DNA of 64,000 bases, taken from NCBI RefSeq assembly GCF_900636535.1, contig NZ_LR134289.1:868001-932000 (forward strand), written 5' to 3'. This document shows positions 19,951 to 26,474 of this stretch, in pieces. The notes below the pieces were generated by a model, which worked only from the letters and a program-made list of their open reading frames with translations, did no database searches and had not been told where the DNA came from. Origin of the DNA: Chryseobacterium gleum. GTDB taxonomy: Bacteria > Bacteroidota > Bacteroidia > Flavobacteriales > Weeksellaceae. Both the position numbers and the translations under genes were made by a program. How positions within the stretch are numbered: the stretch's first letter is position 1; every line of letters begins with the position of its first letter.

Positions 19951-20733
19951 TTATCCATTCAATCCCAAACTGTTATACACCTTCACCTGCCATATTCCAA
20001 GGACTTCTTTAAGCATGACAAAAGTGAACGCAGCATTATAGCTGTTAGGAATCAGTGTAATTTCAGTAGTAATAAAATCTGATGCATTGGGAACAGGATG
20101 TAATCCAAAGGTCTGAAACAAAGCAACAGATCTTTTCATATGAAAACCAGAAGTCACCAGGTCTATACTGGAAGGAGCCATCTGCTTCAAAATCCTGCTG
20201 GAATATTTTGCATTTTCATACGTATTCATGCTTTTATCTTCCTTAATAATATCAGCATCTGCCACTCCCATTTTTTTAAAATTCTCACGAAATAATTCCG
20301 CTTCACTCATGCTTCCTTTTCCTTTTCCCGAAACTAATATTTTACAGGATTGATTATTTGTCTTGTATGCATGATAAAGCTGGTAAGCTGTTACCATTCT
20401 GGAATAAGACATTGTATGCAGTTTTTCTGTATGGTCTATGTTTACCACTCCGCCACCTAATACAACAATTACGGGATGTTGAGAACCGGAATTCCTGATT
20501 TCGGAAGTATTGAGGTAGCTTTTCTGCAGATAGCCTGAAATGAGTTTACCGAGAAAACCATTTCCTATAAAGATGATCATCAAAACGGCAAATATGCCCA
20601 TTCCTATGCGTAGATTTTTACGCTTGTTCTTTCTTCTTAAAAGTGCAATGATAACCACTGCGAGAAATACTAAGAAATAAGGCTCTGTAAAAAGCTGGAT
20701 AGTACGAAACAAAAGGTCTAATAAAAACTTCAT
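19951..20733 (-). CDS. YdcF/ElyC-type DUF218 membrane protein
   Basis: 260 residues from the ATG at 20733 (a TTG two codons upstream is less likely). Two N-terminal membrane helices (about 15-60) precede a DUF218 domain: HPVIVVLGGGV, SYSRMVTAYQLYH, CKILVSGKGKG, EDKSMNTYENAKYS and DLVTSGFHMKRSVALF. E. coli relatives (ElyC, SanA, YdcF) affect envelope integrity and lipid-carrier metabolism, with the domain in the periplasm. Single gene. Confidence 0.88.
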   Translation of the reverse strand: MKFLLDLLFRTIQLFTEPYFLVFLAVVIIALLRRKNKRKNLRIGMGIFAVLMIIFIGNGFLGKLISGYLQKSYLNTSEIRNSGSQHPVIVVLGGGVVNIDHTEKLHTMSYSRMVTAYQLYHAYKTNNQSCKILVSGKGKGSMSEAELFRENFKKMGVADADIIKEDKSMNTYENAKYSSRILKQMAPSSIDLVTSGFHMKRSVALFQTFGLHPVPNASDFITTEITLIPNSYNAAFTFVMLKEVLGIWQVKVYNSLGLNG

Positions 20734-20739
20734 CTTCAA

Positions 20740-21236
20740 ATAATATTATTTAATACCTGCAAACATTAAAAGCCCAAAGATAAAGCAATTTTCTGAGTAT
20801 AACTTTTTACAGCAGCAAACCATTCCATATAATCAGGATGATTTCGTGTTATTTTTTCTTTTGATTTTTTCCATTTATTTTATACATTTGCACACAACAC
20901 ACTTTTTAGTGTGTTAAATAAAATACCTACCCAGTGAAAAAGCAGAAAAGTATCACCGTTTTGATGACCGTACTCCATATATTTTTGGAAAGGCATTTTT
21001 GTAAAGGAAAAAACAAAAATTCTTCCTCACGTATAAAAAAACGATTTCTACTTTAAAAAACTGAAAGCCAACCTGATCTGTTTTTAAATCAAAAACAAAA
21101 GATCTCACTGATAATTTCCGGACTGTATTTATTACAAAACCTTAACAGATTTACTGTTAAAATTAATGTTGCCTCAATGCAATATGCCCTTTAAACAAAG
21201 TACATTTGCTGAAAACTTTAATACAACATCTGTGAA
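20740..21236. other. Gap with promoter, hairpin and a possible 40-codon ORF
   Basis: The gap contains a well-formed plus-strand promoter (20861-20890), a 7-bp inverted repeat AACACAC/GTGTGTT (20896-20902, 20909-20915) at the expected transcript start, and a basic 40-codon frame from GTG at 20934 to TAA at 21054-21056. Another -7 element, TACATTTG, is at 21201-21208 just before the methyltransferase. Confidence 0.45.
20861..20890 (+). promoter_or_regulatory. Well-formed flavobacterial promoter with adjacent inverted repeat
   Basis: TTG at 20861-20863, 19 bases, TACATTTG at 20883-20890. The AACACAC-N6-GTGTGTT repeat begins 6 bases further on, where a repressor would block initiation. Confidence 0.6.
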
Positions 21237-22025
21237 ATGTCAACAGTCCTCAAAACATTTGTAGCTTATCTTAAAAGGCCCCCTCTTTATCCTGAACTGG
21301 GCAGAAAAATTATCAAAAACACATTCAACAGAAGAAGTTCGTCCAAAGGAAAAGCCAGAGCAAATTTCTGGGCTGCCTCCATAGCCGTTTCTCAGGAAGA
21401 AGTGATCTCCAGACTTTTCTCCCGCGATGCTGATCATTTCAGATCTGCTTATGCCGATATCCTGCAAAAAGCCAGTGTAAAAGAAAGGGAATGCCCTGTC
21501 AAAATGGGTGAACATGGCTCGTTGGAGCTTATTTATTATGCATGTGAATTCACCAAAGCACAAAACGTTCTTGAAACCGGAGTAGCTTATGGATGGTCTT
21601 CACTGGCGATATTGCTTTCGCTTCAAAAAAGAAACGGCACACTCTATAGTTCAGATATGCCTTTTCTTGCTCAAAATGGAGATCAGTATGCAGGATGTGT
21701 TGTTCCTGATCATCTTAAAAAATACTGGAAGCTATTCCGTTTTGCAGATAGAGAATCTCTGCCTAAAATTTTCAAACAGGCTTCCTCATTTGATGTTTTC
21801 CACTATGATTCCGATAAAAGTTACCACGGAAGAATGTGGGCGTATCATCAGATCTATAAAAAGCTTAGACCTGGCGGAGTGTTTATCAGTGATGATATCG
21901 GAGACAATTCCGCGTATCAGGATTTTTGCAACCGAATGAATATCAGCACTTGTGTTGTAGAATATAATGGAAAATATATCGGCATTTTTGTAAAAGAATA
22001 TATTCCGCTGATCAGAGCTAAATAA
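21237..22025 (+). CDS. Class I SAM-dependent methyltransferase
   Basis: 262 residues. About 90-240 form a Rossmann methyltransferase of the Methyltransf_24 type: NVLETGVAYGWSSLAIL (SAM-binding motif I), GTLYSSDMP, FDVFHYDSDKSYHGRMWAYHQIYKKLRPGGVFISDDIG. Family members include O-methyltransferases attached to sugar, cephalosporin-hydroxylase-like and polyketide pathways. No pathway neighbours are present, so the substrate is unknown. The first 70 residues are basic and not recognised. Confidence 0.85.
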   Translation: MSTVLKTFVAYLKRPPLYPELGRKIIKNTFNRRSSSKGKARANFWAASIAVSQEEVISRLFSRDADHFRSAYADILQKASVKERECPVKMGEHGSLELIYYACEFTKAQNVLETGVAYGWSSLAILLSLQKRNGTLYSSDMPFLAQNGDQYAGCVVPDHLKKYWKLFRFADRESLPKIFKQASSFDVFHYDSDKSYHGRMWAYHQIYKKLRPGGVFISDDIGDNSAYQDFCNRMNISTCVVEYNGKYIGIFVKEYIPLIRAK

Positions 22026-22265
22026 CGCAATTGATGAGATAAAACTATACTTAAATTTAAAAACCATTAAGAAAGCGGTAAGCTGTTAAGGATATGAAGA
22101 GAGCACAAGACATTCATGAAGCCTTACCGCTCTATTAAAATCACTCTCACCATGGACCGAAACGAATCTTAATCCTCTTAACCTCTTACTACAATCTTAA
22201 TGGTTCAAAATAAAAAACTTTAATTTTAAAAATTTAAGCCTCCTGATGGTTTAAAACTAATATTT

Positions 22266-22496
22266 TCACTCATAGCTCACTTCCCTTTCTAAAATAATCT
22301 GGTTTCTGCTTACAGTAACCAGTATCTTATCTCCTGCCTGAAAGCCACATTGCTGTACCCACTTCCCTGTAATTCTTATTTCAGGAAAATATACAATTCT
22401 GCCATACGCTCTTGAAAACGATTTGAGGAAAACCGTAAGGTTACGATTCTGCAGTTCATTATATTTGCTGCTGTTCATTCTTCTTTTTCTTTTCAT
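22266..22496 (-). CDS. symE: SymE-family type I toxin
   Basis: 76 residues with the AbrB-like SymE core: FPEIRITGKWVQQCGFQAGDKILVTVSRNQIILERE (about 37-73), after a basic N-terminus. In E. coli SymE is an SOS-induced toxin whose mRNA is silenced by the antisense RNA SymR. Here it lies divergently upstream of an XRE regulator and a GHKL-nuclease fusion, a position consistent with a defense or addiction cluster. An antisense RNA over its 5' end would run on the plus strand near 22400-22560, but I could not define one. The second ATG, nine codons in, is a possible alternative start. Confidence 0.8.
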   Translation of the reverse strand: MKRKRRMNSSKYNELQNRNLTVFLKSFSRAYGRIVYFPEIRITGKWVQQCGFQAGDKILVTVSRNQIILEREVSYE

Positions 22497-22633
22497 CTTT
22501 GTTATTTTTCAACAAATGAAGGGATAATAAGAAGGATAAACCATCCGGATAAAGGATATTTTATTCAGAAAGAAGGATATTTTAGAATAGTATTTATTTT
22601 AAAACAGAGCATTATTTTTTTGTTCTAAAGCTT

Positions 22634-22641
22634 TATATTTG
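22634..22641 (+). promoter_or_regulatory. -7 element TATATTTG of the XRE/GHKL operon
   Basis: A perfect TAnnTTTG ends 5 bases before the ATG at 22647. If used, the transcript would start at about that ATG, giving a leaderless mRNA or favouring the ATG at 22662. Confidence 0.5.
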
Positions 22642-22646
22642 TTATT

Positions 22647-23054
22647 ATGACTTACACAGATATGCAAAATAAAAAAATACATCAGGGTAGAAATATAAAG
22701 CGTTTCCGCGAAATGCTGGGCATCAAACAGGAAGCTCTGGCTTTTGAGCTGGGAGACGACTGGAACCAAAAGAAAATCTCCCTTCTGGAACAAAAAGAAA
22801 CCGTAGAATCTGATATTCTGGCGCAGGTAGCACAGATTTTGAAAGTTCCCGCAGAAGCGATTGAAAATTTTGATGAGGAACAGGCGGTGAATATTATTTC
22901 GAATACTTTCAATACACATGATCATTCAAACGGTGTGAATGTTCAACCTACTTTTACTTTCAATCCTCTTGATAAAATGGTGGAGCTTTATGAGCGTATG
23001 CTGGAGCAGCAGAGGGAGATGATTGAGAAATTGGAGAGGTTGATTGAGAAATAA
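22647..23054 (+). CDS. XRE-type DNA-binding protein with coiled-coil tail
   Basis: 135 residues (130 if the ATG at 22662 is used). Residues about 14-70 are an XRE-type helix-turn-helix (NIKRFREMLGIKQEALAFELGDDWNQKKISLLEQ). A short linker is followed by a C-terminal amphipathic helix with E-R-M-L-E-Q-Q-R-E-M heptads, likely a dimerising coiled coil. The GHKL-nuclease gene starts 23 bases later, so this protein is probably its co-transcribed regulator. Small HTH plus coiled-coil proteins of this kind are common in Bacteroidota, so it may be a resident gene beside an acquired one. Confidence 0.82.
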   Translation: MTYTDMQNKKIHQGRNIKRFREMLGIKQEALAFELGDDWNQKKISLLEQKETVESDILAQVAQILKVPAEAIENFDEEQAVNIISNTFNTHDHSNGVNVQPTFTFNPLDKMVELYERMLEQQREMIEKLERLIEK

Positions 23055-23077
23055 AGTAAGATAAAATTATAAAATTG

Positions 23078-25144
23078 ATGTCAAATACTCTTAATAAAAT
23101 GAACTCGGTAACTGAAAAGATTACAACTAATACGAGGGTTATTAAAAACTTATTAACAAAATATGGAGATACATTTAAAGCTTTTAAAGAATTGATAAAT
23201 AATTCTATACAAGCTGGCTCAAAAAATATTTTTATCACCATAAATTACACAAACTCTTTAACTGTTAAATCAGGTATTGAGAAAATTGTTATTGAAGATG
23301 ATGGCCACGGTGTTCCTTACTCAGAATTTAAAAAAAAAGTGCTCCAAATTGCAACTAATGTCAAAGAAAGAGGTCAGGGAATTGGACGTTTTAGTTCATT
23401 CCAAATTGGTGAGTTAATGAAAATTGAAACTGTTGCTTTTGATAGATTAAGCAAACAATATAGTAAAACTATTTTTGGAATTGATACTAGAGATTTAGAG
23501 GATATAGAACTTGAAAAAACTGATGTAAAGGTTGATTATCAATATTTCTCTGAAAAAAATCTTCCTACTTATTATAAAGTTGAAATTGAAAACTTACATC
23601 ATAATAGTCCAACACGAGTTCCAAAAAAGAATTTAATAATAGAAGATTTTAAGCAAGAATATATTGCTCAAACTATTTTTGAAAATTACCCTTTTGAAAT
23701 TTTTAATGACAGAGTTAATTTTTATATCAATGGGCAAAAATTGAATAAATCTTATTTTGTTATTGGAGAACCAATTTATAAAAAAGTTGACTATACAAAT
23801 AAAAACGGAAAGATTTATGATCTAAACTTTTACTTCTATAATGTCAAAACATCACTAAATAAAGTTAAAGTATTTTTACAGGCCGAAAATGCTGGAATAA
23901 AATCTGTTGCCCATGAATTTACATATTCATCAGATTGGTACACTCATGATTTAGGAACTTGGTTTGTATATATTGATTCTGATTTATTTGATCAAGATTT
24001 ATTTAGAAACATAGACATTGAATCTTTGGGTGAAGAAGAGACCAAAAATTTAAAAATTTGTATAAAAGATACAATAAATGATTTTTTCAAAACTAGAAAT
24101 AAAAGGTTTGAAAAATTTGTAAAAACCTTGGAAAAAGATAAGTATTATCCATATAAAGATACAAAACCTGCTACAGATTCTCAAGAAATTGTTTTCAAAA
24201 AAATAGCATATTTAATTGAGGATAAGCATTATATTATTGAAAAAGATGATAAAATAAGAACTTTTCTTTTTCCTCTTTTAGATAAAGCTATTAGTGATGG
24301 TAATATTGAATATATATTTAATAAGGTGCTTAATTTATCTAACGAAAACATTGAAAAATTTCATAATCTTTTACAAAAAACTGATCTAGAAAATGTTGTT
24401 CATTTTGCAAGTCAGGTTGCTGATAAGACAGAATTTTTAAATTTTCTACATGAACTCATTTATGGTAAGATTTCAGCCCATTTAAAAGAACGTAGTCAGC
24501 TTCATAAAATTGTAGAAAATGAATTGTGGCTGTTTGGCGAGAATTATAATAATACACCTCATGTGTGGTCTGATAAAAAAATTGGTAATATTTTAGAAGA
24601 ACTAACTATTAAACATTTACACTATGAGCCAACAGCGGAAGATAACAATATTATAGAAGATACCGAAGGCTTGGATAATATAACAGATTTATTTTTTCTT
24701 AATGAAAAAATAAATGACAATGAAGAACGAGAAATAATGGTAGTTGAACTAAAATCTCCTAAATGTGCTATAGGGAAAAAAGAACTTAATCAAATCGATA
24801 CCTATGCATTTACAATAGAAGATTACCCTGTATTACCTGCTGAGAAAGTAAAGTATAAATTATATCTAGTATCTTCAAGATTAAATAGATATGCTAAGTC
24901 ACAAGTGAAATCCAGAAGAGATAGTTATCCAAATCAACCTTTTCTATACGATAAGAAAAAAGACAAAAACATTGAGGTATATGTAATGGAATGGTCGGAA
25001 ATAATAGAATTGAACAAGAGAAAGTTAAACTATTTATCTAACCAACTAAATATAAAAGATAAATCTGTTAAGGATAAATTTGAGAATGAATATTCTGCAT
25101 TAATAGACGAGAAAATTAGTGCTCAATTACGACAAATAAAATAA
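23078..25144 (+). CDS. GHKL ATPase fused to DUF4263/Shedu-like nuclease domain
   Basis: 688 residues from ATG 23078 (a TTG one codon earlier also fits). The N-terminus is a Hsp90/MutL/MORC-type ATPase: FKELINNSIQAGS (N-box), IEDDGHGV (G1, about residue 74) and ERGQGIGRFSSFQIG (G2/lid, about 98). About 200-480 is an uncharacterised middle part. The C-terminus has LHKIVENELWLFGENYN, Asp537 in ITDLFFL, Glu557-x-Lys559 in VVELKSP, Gln572 and Tyr576 in ELNQIDTYAF, then VYVMEWSEII: the PD-(D/E)xK layout of DUF4263, the nuclease domain of the Shedu antiphage system. The coding sequence is much more AT-rich than its neighbours. A role in phage defense is a good inference; exact matches to known systems were not searched. 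Confidence 0.8.
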   Translation: MSNTLNKMNSVTEKITTNTRVIKNLLTKYGDTFKAFKELINNSIQAGSKNIFITINYTNSLTVKSGIEKIVIEDDGHGVPYSEFKKKVLQIATNVKERGQGIGRFSSFQIGELMKIETVAFDRLSKQYSKTIFGIDTRDLEDIELEKTDVKVDYQYFSEKNLPTYYKVEIENLHHNSPTRVPKKNLIIEDFKQEYIAQTIFENYPFEIFNDRVNFYINGQKLNKSYFVIGEPIYKKVDYTNKNGKIYDLNFYFYNVKTSLNKVKVFLQAENAGIKSVAHEFTYSSDWYTHDLGTWFVYIDSDLFDQDLFRNIDIESLGEEETKNLKICIKDTINDFFKTRNKRFEKFVKTLEKDKYYPYKDTKPATDSQEIVFKKIAYLIEDKHYIIEKDDKIRTFLFPLLDKAISDGNIEYIFNKVLNLSNENIEKFHNLLQKTDLENVVHFASQVADKTEFLNFLHELIYGKISAHLKERSQLHKIVENELWLFGENYNNTPHVWSDKKIGNILEELTIKHLHYEPTAEDNNIIEDTEGLDNITDLFFLNEKINDNEEREIMVVELKSPKCAIGKKELNQIDTYAFTIEDYPVLPAEKVKYKLYLVSSRLNRYAKSQVKSRRDSYPNQPFLYDKKKDKNIEVYVMEWSEIIELNKRKLNYLSNQLNIKDKSVKDKFENEYSALIDEKISAQLRQIK

Positions 25145-25477
25145 ATATTTCTATTTCCAAATATTATTATTAAAAAAATTTTATATCATCCATTAATTGG
25201 GTGATATTTTCTTTACAACCCTCCACTAAAAGATCAAAAAGATTCGTATTATAACATTCTAACTATTCAAACCATCAAATTATTTGTTTATATAATTACT
25301 ATAGTTTCAATTAAAGCACAATTATATATGTTGAAAATTTTAGAAATGTTCATTTTTTACTACTTCTTCAGCTTACCTCATTTGCGTTCGGTTTCCGCCC
25401 ACCCAATAGTGAAGGAAAGTAATCATAGATACTTTTAAAAACTGATTTATTAAAATCAAAATTTTTCAAAAAAAAAC
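25145..25477. other. AT-rich gap after the nuclease gene
   Basis: No gene or terminator is evident. The sequence becomes less AT-rich near 25370-25430, where foreign-looking DNA gives way to the ArsR promoter. Confidence 0.35.
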
Positions 25478-25523
25478 TTGCGTAGCTAAATAACTACACA
25501 TATATTTGTAGCCAAATAACTAC
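25478..25523 (+). promoter_or_regulatory. ArsR-type promoter with two GTAG-N8-CTAC operators
   Basis: TTG at 25478-25480, 20 bases, TATATTTG at 25501-25508. Two near-identical inverted repeats, GTAG-CTAAATAA-CTAC at 25482-25497 and GTAG-CCAAATAA-CTAC at 25508-25523, flank the -7 element, as expected for self-repression by the ArsR protein encoded next. Confidence 0.75.
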
Positions 25524-25526
25524 ACA

Positions 25527-25859
25527 ATGAATTTAAGAAGAGATGTATTTCAGGCAATAGCGGATCCTACGAGACGGTCTATATTGATGTTGGTGGCGGC
25601 ACAGTCGATGACGGCGGGAGCCATTGCTTCCAATTTTGATACGGCAAGACCTACCGTTTCAAAGCATCTCCAGATCCTTACAGAATGCGAACTGCTGAGA
25701 TCCGAACAAAACGGCAGAGAAATTATCTATCACCTTAATCCCAATAAAATGAAAGAAATAGCCGATTTTATAGAACCCTTCCGCAAAATGTGGGATGAGA
25801 AATTCAACAAGCTGGAAAGTGTGATGAAAGCGTACCAGAATGTGAATAATAAGACATAA
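25527..25859 (+). CDS. ArsR-family regulator
   Basis: 110 residues, a winged helix-turn-helix typical of ArsR partners of SRPBCC proteins: [66 protein letters not shown]. No Cys/His metal site of the SmtB/ArsR type is visible, as usual for this subgroup. Its promoter carries two inverted repeats that fit self-repression. The SRPBCC gene lies 667 bases downstream, beyond a tandem repeat. Confidence 0.88.
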
Positions 25860-25911
25860 AAGATGATAGACGGATAGATAATAGACAAGGGCATCAAAAT
25901 TTAACTGGTGG

Positions 25912-26474
25912 ATGTCAATAGTCAATTTTGCTTCGCAAGTGAAATCGTCAATTATCAGTGAATAGGATGACAACCTTGAACTTTAAACTTCAAACCTTAA
26001 ACTCGAATGTCAATAGTCAATTTTGCTTCGCAAGTGGAATCGTCAATCACCAGTGAATAGGATGACAACCTTGAACTTTAAACTTCAAACCTTAAACTCG
26101 AATGTCAATAGTCAATTTTGCTTCGCAAGTGGAATCGTCAATCACCAGTGAATAGGATGACAACCTTGAACTTTAAACTTCAAACCTTAAACTCGAATGT
26201 CAATAGTCAATTTTGCTTCGCAAGTGAATCGTCAATCACCAGTAAAAGAATGACAACCTTGAACTTTAAATTTCAAACCTTAAACTCGAATGTCAATAGT
26301 CAATTTTGCTTCGCAAGTGAATCGTCAATCACCAGTAAAAGAATGACAACCTTGAACTTTAAATTTCAAACCTTAAACTCGAATGTCAATAGTCAATTTT
26401 GCTTCGCAAGTGAATCGTCAATCACCAGTGAATAGGATTACAACCTTGAACTTTAAACTTCAAACCTTGAACTC
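25912..26474. repeat. Six-copy 93-95 bp tandem repeat
   Basis: Copies start at about 25912, 26007, 26102, 26197, 26290 and 26383, so the spacing is 95, 95, 95, 93, 93. Each has GTCAATAGTCAATTTTGC, TTCGCAAGTG, ATCGTCAATCACCAGT and CCTTGAACTTTAAA blocks. A degenerate extra copy lies at about 27047-27140. A spurious reading frame of 105 codons runs through it. There is no spacer diversity, so it is not a CRISPR array. Confidence 0.93.

What the first reader, a model, noticed from the sequence alone, without database searches (positions are those of the whole stretch)
22266..25144. Candidate defense cluster: SymE toxin, XRE regulator and GHKL ATPase fused to a Shedu-like nuclease
Seen: a 688-residue protein joins a Hsp90/MORC-type ATPase (N-box FKELINNS, DDGHG, GQGIG) to a C-terminal D..ExK..QxxxY nuclease of DUF4263 type, starts 23 bases after an XRE gene, is markedly more AT-rich than its flanks, and lies beside a divergent SymE toxin. 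Known: DUF4263 is the nuclease of the Shedu antiphage system; GHKL-nuclease fusions (paraMORC type) are associated with restriction and defense. Inference: an ATP-gated nuclease defense system, possibly with SymE as a second layer. The middle 280 residues match nothing I know.
Basis: partly seen in the sequence, partly recalled or inferred. Interest (0 to 1): 0.72.

Follow-up and report, generated by a model that had tools for sequence, protein, structure and literature searches.

The report
Nuclease gene in swappable defence slot
A bacterial gene that joins an ATP-driven clamp to a DNA-cutting domain looks like an anti-virus defence gene of a kind already known, and it sits in a chromosomal slot where related bacteria carry many different defence genes behind the same two small control genes.

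The parts
22266..22496 (-). SymE-like gene (76 aa), constant left part of the slot
   Evidence: PF08845 36.4 bits, cut-off 29; a SymE match divergent from XRE in 32 of 32 slots
22554..22584 (.). direct repeat GGATATTTTA, copies at 22554-22563 and 22575-22584, start to start 21 bp; putative XRE operator (inferred)
   Evidence: two ATATTTTA-like copies 21 bp apart in 32 of 32 slots, with the variants seen allowed in the search pattern
22634..22641 (+). TATATTTG, reads as a Bacteroidota -7 box (consensus TAnnTTTG recalled, not from a call), 5 nt before the XRE ATG
   Evidence: present in 32 of 32 slots
22647..23054 (+). XRE-family regulator (135 aa), constant head of the slot; a stretch near its end already differs from the closest genome
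   Evidence: HTH_19 E 1.3e-4, 22.3 bits, below the curated cut-off of 30.2; PADLOC HTH_VI model E 2.8e-7; relatives at E<=1e-57 in 34 of 148 genomes
23099..25144 (+).
23129..24109 (+). ATPase plus S5/transducer module (residues 11-337 of 681)
24110..24373 (+). helical linker (residues 338-425)
   Evidence: predicted helices, part of it at low confidence
24374..25042 (+). PD-(D/E)xK nuclease region (residues 426-648) with D530, E550, K552, Q565
25458..25526 (+). right junction: conserved upstream region of arsR, about 60 nt
   Evidence: identity to the closest genome resumes at 25458; visible in all 31 slots aligned
25527..25859 (+). arsR-type regulator gene, right border of the slot
   Evidence: HTH_20 E 2.9e-11; an arsR match on XRE's strand downstream in 31 of 31 slots whose fetched stretch reaches that far

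Best explanation
The 23099-25144 gene encodes a stand-alone anti-phage nuclease of the paraMORC3 kind that works like VcSduA. Inferred mechanism: ATP binding closes a GHKL dimer, the transducer and helical region act as a clamp that senses a phage-linked DNA or protein state, and this licenses the C-terminal D-ExK nuclease to cut nucleic acid. The gene is cargo in a defence slot between a divergent symE-XRE pair and arsR. Shown here: predicted fold, motifs, patchy distribution, positional equivalence with other defence genes, and different cargo at the same place in closely related genomes. Inferred: anti-phage activity, ATP gating, DNA as target, expression from the XRE promoter, and recombination in the shared flanks as the means of exchange.
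For: MORC-type ATPase fold and Shedu SduA as best PDB match of the nuclease half. Invariant catalytic residues, also shared with a GHKL plus SduA_C protein from the same phylum, L195. Profile comparison with 11 Bacteroidota Shedu proteins: probability 90-94%, 44-67% when L195 is left out, against 0.3% or less for seven unrelated control families. Present in 6 of 148 genus genomes, only 2 of them close copies. Slot content: of 32 slots, 2 this gene, 20 other defence-type genes, 6 unassigned, 4 empty. First slot gene in XRE's direction in 26 of 27 plus the window. Four-fold-site divergence from C. aquifrigidense 23/177 for this gene against 235/717 for 12 neighbouring genes (symE and XRE among them), Fisher P 5e-8. 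Genome G002, the closest at this locus, has a TIR gene in the slot. VcSduA is published as anti-phage, with E27A and K557A abolishing activity (PMC12137116, passages).
Against: No activity test. PADLOC-DB of 2023 gives no hit for this protein and Pfam SduA_C none in 38 aligned sequences. The structural match to SduA is within 1 Z unit of Nt.BspD6I and EndoMS, so the exact nuclease family is not settled by fold. The profile match to Shedu depends partly on L195. Neighbours of most nuclease loci outside the genus were not classified; a BLAST of those loci with the slot proteins gave 4 weak matches in 3 loci. Low four-fold divergence may be lowered somewhat by AT-rich codon use. Six occupied slots hold genes that I could not assign.
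Confidence: 0.78

Rival explanations
1. SymE, XRE and the GHKL-nuclease form one three-gene defence system, with SymE as a second killing layer.
For: The three-gene order recurs in C. aquifrigidense (L013) and, with an interrupted nuclease ORF, in Flavobacterium supellecticarium (L014).
Against: The pair occurs in 30 other slots with other or no cargo; XRE is next to only 3 of 47 nuclease loci and SymE next to 2. The nuclease gene is less diverged than the pair between the two species: 23/177 against 17/57 four-fold sites, P 0.0075.
Confidence: 0.07
2. The slot is a neutral insertion-tolerant spot; XRE and SymE have no role in the cargo's function.
For: Four slots have no cargo, and some cargos are lipoprotein-like or unassigned. 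Insertion before arsR would not break a gene. The related XREs of other genera that I looked at are mostly followed by ordinary genes.
Against: 27 of 28 first cargo genes run in XRE's direction; 20 of 26 occupied slots other than those with this nuclease hold defence-type genes; the pair and its intergenic repeats are kept in 32 of 32.
Confidence: 0.3
3. The protein is a MutL-like DNA repair or chromosome maintenance enzyme, not a defence protein.
For: GHKL-plus-nuclease is also the MutL plan; the top PDB sequence matches of the family profile are MutL-type proteins and MORC2. Iyer et al. 2008 left a non-RM role open for stand-alone paraMORC3 (PMC2292703, passages).
Against: Present in 6 of 148 genus genomes, distant relatives on plasmids and two Pasteurella phages, and a TIR gene in its place in the closest genome.
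Confidence: 0.08
4. Defence by abortive infection: the nuclease cuts host nucleic acids and kills the infected cell rather than restricting phage DNA.
For: Other PD-(D/E)xK defence nucleases may act this way; WonB in the same paper is suggested to act on rRNA or tRNA (PMC12137116, passages).
Against: VcSduA protects cultures at all tested phage doses, which its authors read as direct restriction (PMC12137116, passages). No data for this protein.
Confidence: 0.3

Closest known systems
VcSduA, GHKL ATPase plus DUF4263 nuclease of Vibrio cholerae (PMC12137116, passages read)
   Same: N-terminal GHKL ATPase, middle clamp, C-terminal PD-(D/E)xK; single gene; similar spacing from N-box E to catalytic K (E27..K557 there, E31..K552 here)
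   Different: This protein does not reach Pfam's SduA_C model; it has no tested activity; sequence identity to VcSduA was not measured because I did not fetch that protein
paraMORC3 (Iyer et al. 2008, PMC2292703, passages read)
   Same: GHKL plus S5 domain plus C-terminal RE-fold domain with an E-D-ExK pattern, sporadic, in Bacteroidetes and Proteobacteria, a subset stand-alone
   Different: The passages I read describe it by sequence and neighbourhood only; no such slot is described in them
Shedu SduA (E. coli 8ps4, 8ps5; B. cereus 8ti8, 8ti9)
   Different: N-terminal part here is a GHKL ATPase; no Pfam SduA_C match
Core defence hotspots such as cDHS1 of Pseudomonas aeruginosa (PMC10250203, passages read)
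   Same: Conserved borders, exchangeable defence content; a symE gene is reported as common in cDHS1
   Different: Here in Chryseobacterium, 0.3 to 6.8 kb from XRE to arsR, constant divergent SymE-XRE head, cargo read in XRE's direction
SymE/XRE-HTH loci of Serratia (PMC7725324, passages read)
   Same: symE next to an XRE-type HTH gene, proposed as hybrid type I/II toxin-antitoxin loci in a genomic island
   Different: No link to exchangeable defence cargo in the passages I read

Membership tests
paraMORC3 | N-terminal GHKL ATPase with intact motifs | tested here: met
   E38, N41, N42, DxGxG, GxGxG invariant in 38; HATPase_c_3 in 38 of 38
paraMORC3 | S5/transducer domain after the ATPase | tested here: met
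paraMORC3 | C-terminal RE-fold nuclease with E-D-ExK | tested here: met
   E464, D530, E550, K552 (681 numbering) kept in 24 of 24 diverse members; PD-(D/E)xK folds head the structure list
paraMORC3 | clusters with the published paraMORC3 sequences in a tree | not tested
   the published sequences were not fetched
Shedu (type I-D) | match to the signature domain DUF4263 / Pfam SduA_C PF14082 | tested here: not met
   0 of 38 aligned sequences at E<=0.1; of 24 diverse members only L195, chosen for having it; no match in the window's genome at E<=0.001
Shedu (type I-D) | nuclease core related to SduA | tested here: inconclusive
Shedu (type I-D) | anti-phage activity needing ATPase and nuclease residues | not testable with these tools
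   -
SymE type I toxin | SymE_toxin domain | tested here: met
   PF08845 36.4 bits against cut-off 29; NCBIfam's E. coli-type SymE equivalog model gives only 28 bits against 132
SymE type I toxin | antisense SymR RNA and toxicity | not testable with these tools
   no RNA or growth data
defence hotspot | variable content between conserved borders in many genomes | tested here: met
   32 slots, arsR downstream in 31 of 31 that reach it; of the 21 loci with the upstream methyltransferase gene at 79% identity or more, 9 have the pair and 12 do not, arsR following in all 12
defence hotspot | content enriched in defence genes | tested here: met
   20 of 26 occupied slots other than those with this nuclease; no matched background set was scanned, so the enrichment is not put as a P value

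The most novel reading that the evidence does not exclude
The SymE-XRE pair is a dedicated control head for interchangeable immune genes: XRE binds the 21-bp-spaced repeats, keeps itself, SymE and whatever single defence system sits behind it low, and releases all of them on infection, with SymE as a fail-safe that also keeps the slot from being lost. Cargo is swapped by recombination between the XRE region and the arsR upstream region, so the genus carries a plug-in immune slot. The six unassigned cargos (for example the two-gene ATPase system of L122 and L204) would then be new defence systems.
Probability: 0.3. Interest if true: 0.8.

Novelty: new variant of a known kind. Interest (0 to 1): 0.6.

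Why it matters
The nuclease extends a recently validated class of ATP-gated defence nucleases to a large, mainly Bacteroidota branch that the PADLOC models of 2023 do not hit (tested on the window's protein). The slot matters more: a short, fixed place whose constant head is a regulator plus SymE makes three open questions testable at once. These are how single defence systems are exchanged without a visible integrase, whether one regulator can serve unrelated defence systems, and what SymE does next to them. It is also a simple address at which to look for unknown defence genes.

Tried and rejected
DUF4263 by HMM: not found in close relatives. PDB sequence search with the full protein and with the C-terminal profile: no hits. 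Whole-length fold search: the list is filled by Hsp90, TRAP1 and MORC and does not test the nuclease, so the C-terminal half was folded alone. XRE as a general marker of defence operons: not supported outside the genus. Of 20 XRE places in Flavobacterium and other genera fetched, 19 could be anchored (L225 gave no XRE ORF); none of the 19 has a SymE match at E<=1e-3 and many are followed by ordinary genes, with a minority that look defence-like by eye (for example L211, L215, L216, L219, L228). Mantel tests of gene distances between XRE, symE, arsR and SRPBCC: all positive at 0.23-0.51, and arsR against SRPBCC itself only 0.33, so uninformative about exchange. dN/dS by Biopython returned no numbers, so four-fold sites were used. 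SymE-XRE as a partner of the nuclease: not supported. Low GC as a proof of foreign origin: weakened.

Limits of the counts. Context count: 47 loci, L031 dropped as too short; only BLAST relatives (E<=0.01) of the window's XRE and SymE within about 4 kb were sought, so other regulators are not excluded; 11 of 23 Shedu loci gave a usable ORF over 200 aa (10 without L195). G116 and G023 are among the 34 genomes with a close XRE but are not slots. The slot in G044 runs off its contig before arsR. Slots were chosen by XRE similarity (E<=1e-57), so slots with more distant XREs are not counted. HMM scans covered 30 cargo proteins of L121-L161. L126, L137 and one L134 protein were not scanned and are assigned by BLAST to scanned ones. 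Cargo of L200-L205 could not be scanned (cap reached): L200, L202 and L205 are assigned by BLAST to scanned cargo, L204 matches the unassigned L122 pair, L201 is assigned by weak BLAST (20-31%) to the L127 methylase and GHKL proteins plus reading by eye, and L203 is unassigned.
Full report
What is there. The window lies at 868001-932000 of a one-contig 5.6 Mb genome. The closest named locus found is in Chryseobacterium aquifrigidense, 96% identical in the nuclease. A SymE-like gene (22266-22496, -) and an XRE gene (22647-23054, +) are divergent; an AT-rich 2-kb gene follows XRE.

A protein of the same phylum, L195, carries both a GHKL ATPase (99.8 bits) and a SduA_C match (32.5 bits, cut-off 27). 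Its C-terminal part aligns with the window's, and 24 diverse members including it share the N-box E and N, DxGxG, GxG, and E, W, D, ExK, P, Q, Y of the nuclease. Profile comparison with 11 Bacteroidota Shedu proteins gives 90-94% probability, 44-67% with L195 removed, and 0.3% or less for seven unrelated families. So the nuclease is Shedu-like, but by the sequence model it is not a Shedu member.

What is published. Iyer et al. 2008 defined paraMORC3 as GHKL plus S5 plus a C-terminal RE-fold domain with E-D-ExK, sporadic, prevalent in proteobacteria and bacteroidetes, and partly stand-alone (PMC2292703, passages). VcSduA of V. cholerae is a GHKL plus DUF4263 protein that protects against Drexlerviridae in E. 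coli and phage X29 in its host; E27A and K557A abolish activity in E. coli (PMC12137116, passages). Its authors place it in Shedu type I-D, citing Gu et al. 2025, of which I saw only the reference line.

Distribution. The homologue search gave 535 proteins at E<=1e-3 among the 7998 candidates that were scored; those of the 120 listed that bear an organism name are Bacteroidota, one being labelled compost metagenome. The genome scan adds a few more distant copies from Spirochaetes, Verrucomicrobia, Chlamydiae and Geobacter, mostly from metagenome-assembled genomes. Relatives occur in 6 of 148 genus genomes: two close copies including the window, two at 39-40%, one partial at 28% and one fragment. 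Distant relatives sit in 46 of 72,556 plasmid records and 2 of 50,697 phage records, both Pasteurella phages. Of five plasmid copies whose surroundings I opened (one has no annotation), one lies beside drt2, a cytosine methylase and a LlaMI-type endonuclease and another beside a type ISP restriction enzyme.

The setting. Of 47 nuclease loci, XRE of the window's kind is adjacent in 3 and SymE in 2. Conversely, XRE relatives at E<=1e-57 occur in 34 of 148 genus genomes. In 32 of these 34 (window included) the XRE stands in a slot: SymE divergent in 32 of 32, and arsR downstream on XRE's strand in 31 of 31 that reach it. Of the 21 loci whose upstream methyltransferase gene is 79% or more identical, 9 have the pair and 12 do not. 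In the 12, arsR follows the methyltransferase gene, with an S41 peptidase-size ORF between them in three and 88- and 274-aa ORFs in one (L164); three keep partial symE matches, one of only 29 nt.

Slot content. This nuclease: 2. Other defence-type genes: 20 slots. These are nSTAND3/PDC-S73 (4, one interrupted; one of the four scanned, three assigned by BLAST); AbiH and/or CHAT/PDC-S66 (3); PDC-S39, once with a PtuB-like HNH protein (2); cytosine methylase with a second GHKL protein (2; in L201 by weak BLAST and by eye); and one each of Gabija (its GajB reading frame appears split), TIR/PDC-S35, OLD/AriA-like, HNH_2 endonuclease, KAP/PDC-S20, SLFN AlbA_2, Ppl-like, DzbA, and HerA with NurA and SLFN. 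Unassigned: 6 (G042, G128, G027, G022, G127, G082). No cargo: 4 (G036, G068, G100, G047; G100 has only the S41 peptidase, G047 a 151-aa lipoprotein-like ORF). The weaker labels are those of G117 (SLFN AlbA_2), G034, G052 and G122. The first cargo gene runs in XRE's direction in 26 of 27 loci (the exception is L127) and in the window. Of 39 ORFs of 150 aa or more between XRE and arsR in L121-L161, 35 have GC below 0.34.

Exchange. Genome G002 is the closest at this locus: 97% identity in the methyltransferase gene, 94% over 20647-23059 and 96% over 25458-26004, then about 86% beyond. Within XRE identity falls to 0.73-0.78 at 22881-23000, recovers to 0.92 up to 23060, and is lost after that until 25458. 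G002 carries a TIR gene there. Against C. aquifrigidense the nuclease differs at 23/177 four-fold sites, 12 neighbouring genes (symE and XRE among them) at 235/717 (P 5e-8), and symE plus XRE alone at 17/57 (P 0.0075). So the nuclease gene probably spread between these lineages more recently than its surroundings. Elsewhere XRE seems to have moved with its cargo: L126 and L200 share nSTAND3 at 96% protein identity over 823 residues and XRE at 93% DNA identity, but symE at only 68%.

Control region. The symE-XRE intergenic region keeps TATATTTG before the XRE ATG in 32 of 32 slots, and two ATATTTTA-like copies 21 bp apart in 32 of 32. The search pattern for the second count included the variants seen, so it describes rather than tests. 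That XRE binds these repeats is inference.

How it most likely works. ATP closes the GHKL dimer; the transducer and helical region form a clamp on DNA or a phage-linked protein; the clamp state licenses the C-terminal nuclease. This is inferred from the predicted fold and from VcSduA. Whether it restricts phage DNA or kills the cell is open.

Novelty. Searches for SymE with defence islands, hotspots, XRE and Chryseobacterium (42 of 480 matching entries were listed) led to a symE common in P. aeruginosa cDHS1 (PMC10250203, passages) and SymE/XRE pairs in Serratia (PMC7725324, passages). I saw no SymE-XRE-headed exchangeable slot in Chryseobacterium in those listings. Most subscription papers are not in the library. 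The nuclease is a branch of a known kind; the slot is a new variant of the defence hotspot.

Noticed in passing
window 25900-26470: Array of near-identical direct repeats about 95 bp apart between arsR and the SRPBCC gene; related copies occur near the same genes in other genomes of the genus (L070, L073, L080).
   Followed up: no
L122:2435-4755 and L204:5672-7990: Two-gene cargo (about 232 and 538 aa, the second ORC-CDC6-like) in the slot of two species, 32% and 42% identical; no defence label beyond a weak mad8 match. Candidate unknown defence system.
   Followed up: partly
L203:6032-8084, L132:6005-6973, L146:6348-6914: Unassigned slot cargo (286+395 aa; 322 aa; 188 aa, the last two apparently membrane proteins by eye).
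   Followed up: no
L127:798-6875 and L201:2938-9128: Slot cargo that is a restriction-like cluster with its own large GHKL protein (HATPase_c_3 at the N-terminus and HATPase_c at the C-terminus in L127), resembling the HEF_HK/paraMORC clusters of PMC8011034 (passages); a second kind of GHKL protein at the same slot.
   Followed up: partly
L014, L060, L200, L133: Interrupted copies: the nuclease ORF in Flavobacterium supellecticarium (L014) and in a viral contig (L060), nSTAND3 cargo in L200, and apparently GajB in L133 (300- and 124-aa ORFs).
   Followed up: no
L139-L145 (G000 at 364620 and others): A close XRE paralogue without SymE in a constant context beside a 609-aa gene on the opposite strand, not a cargo slot.
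   Followed up: partly
Flavobacterium-family genomes such as G319 and G389: The same XRE family occurs in up to 12 copies per genome (E<=1e-20); none of 19 anchored places has a SymE match and neighbours are mixed.
   Followed up: partly
L007 (Pasteurella phage Pmp3): A distant relative of the nuclease lies among anti-repressor and baseplate genes of a phage, as a likely accessory gene.
   Followed up: no
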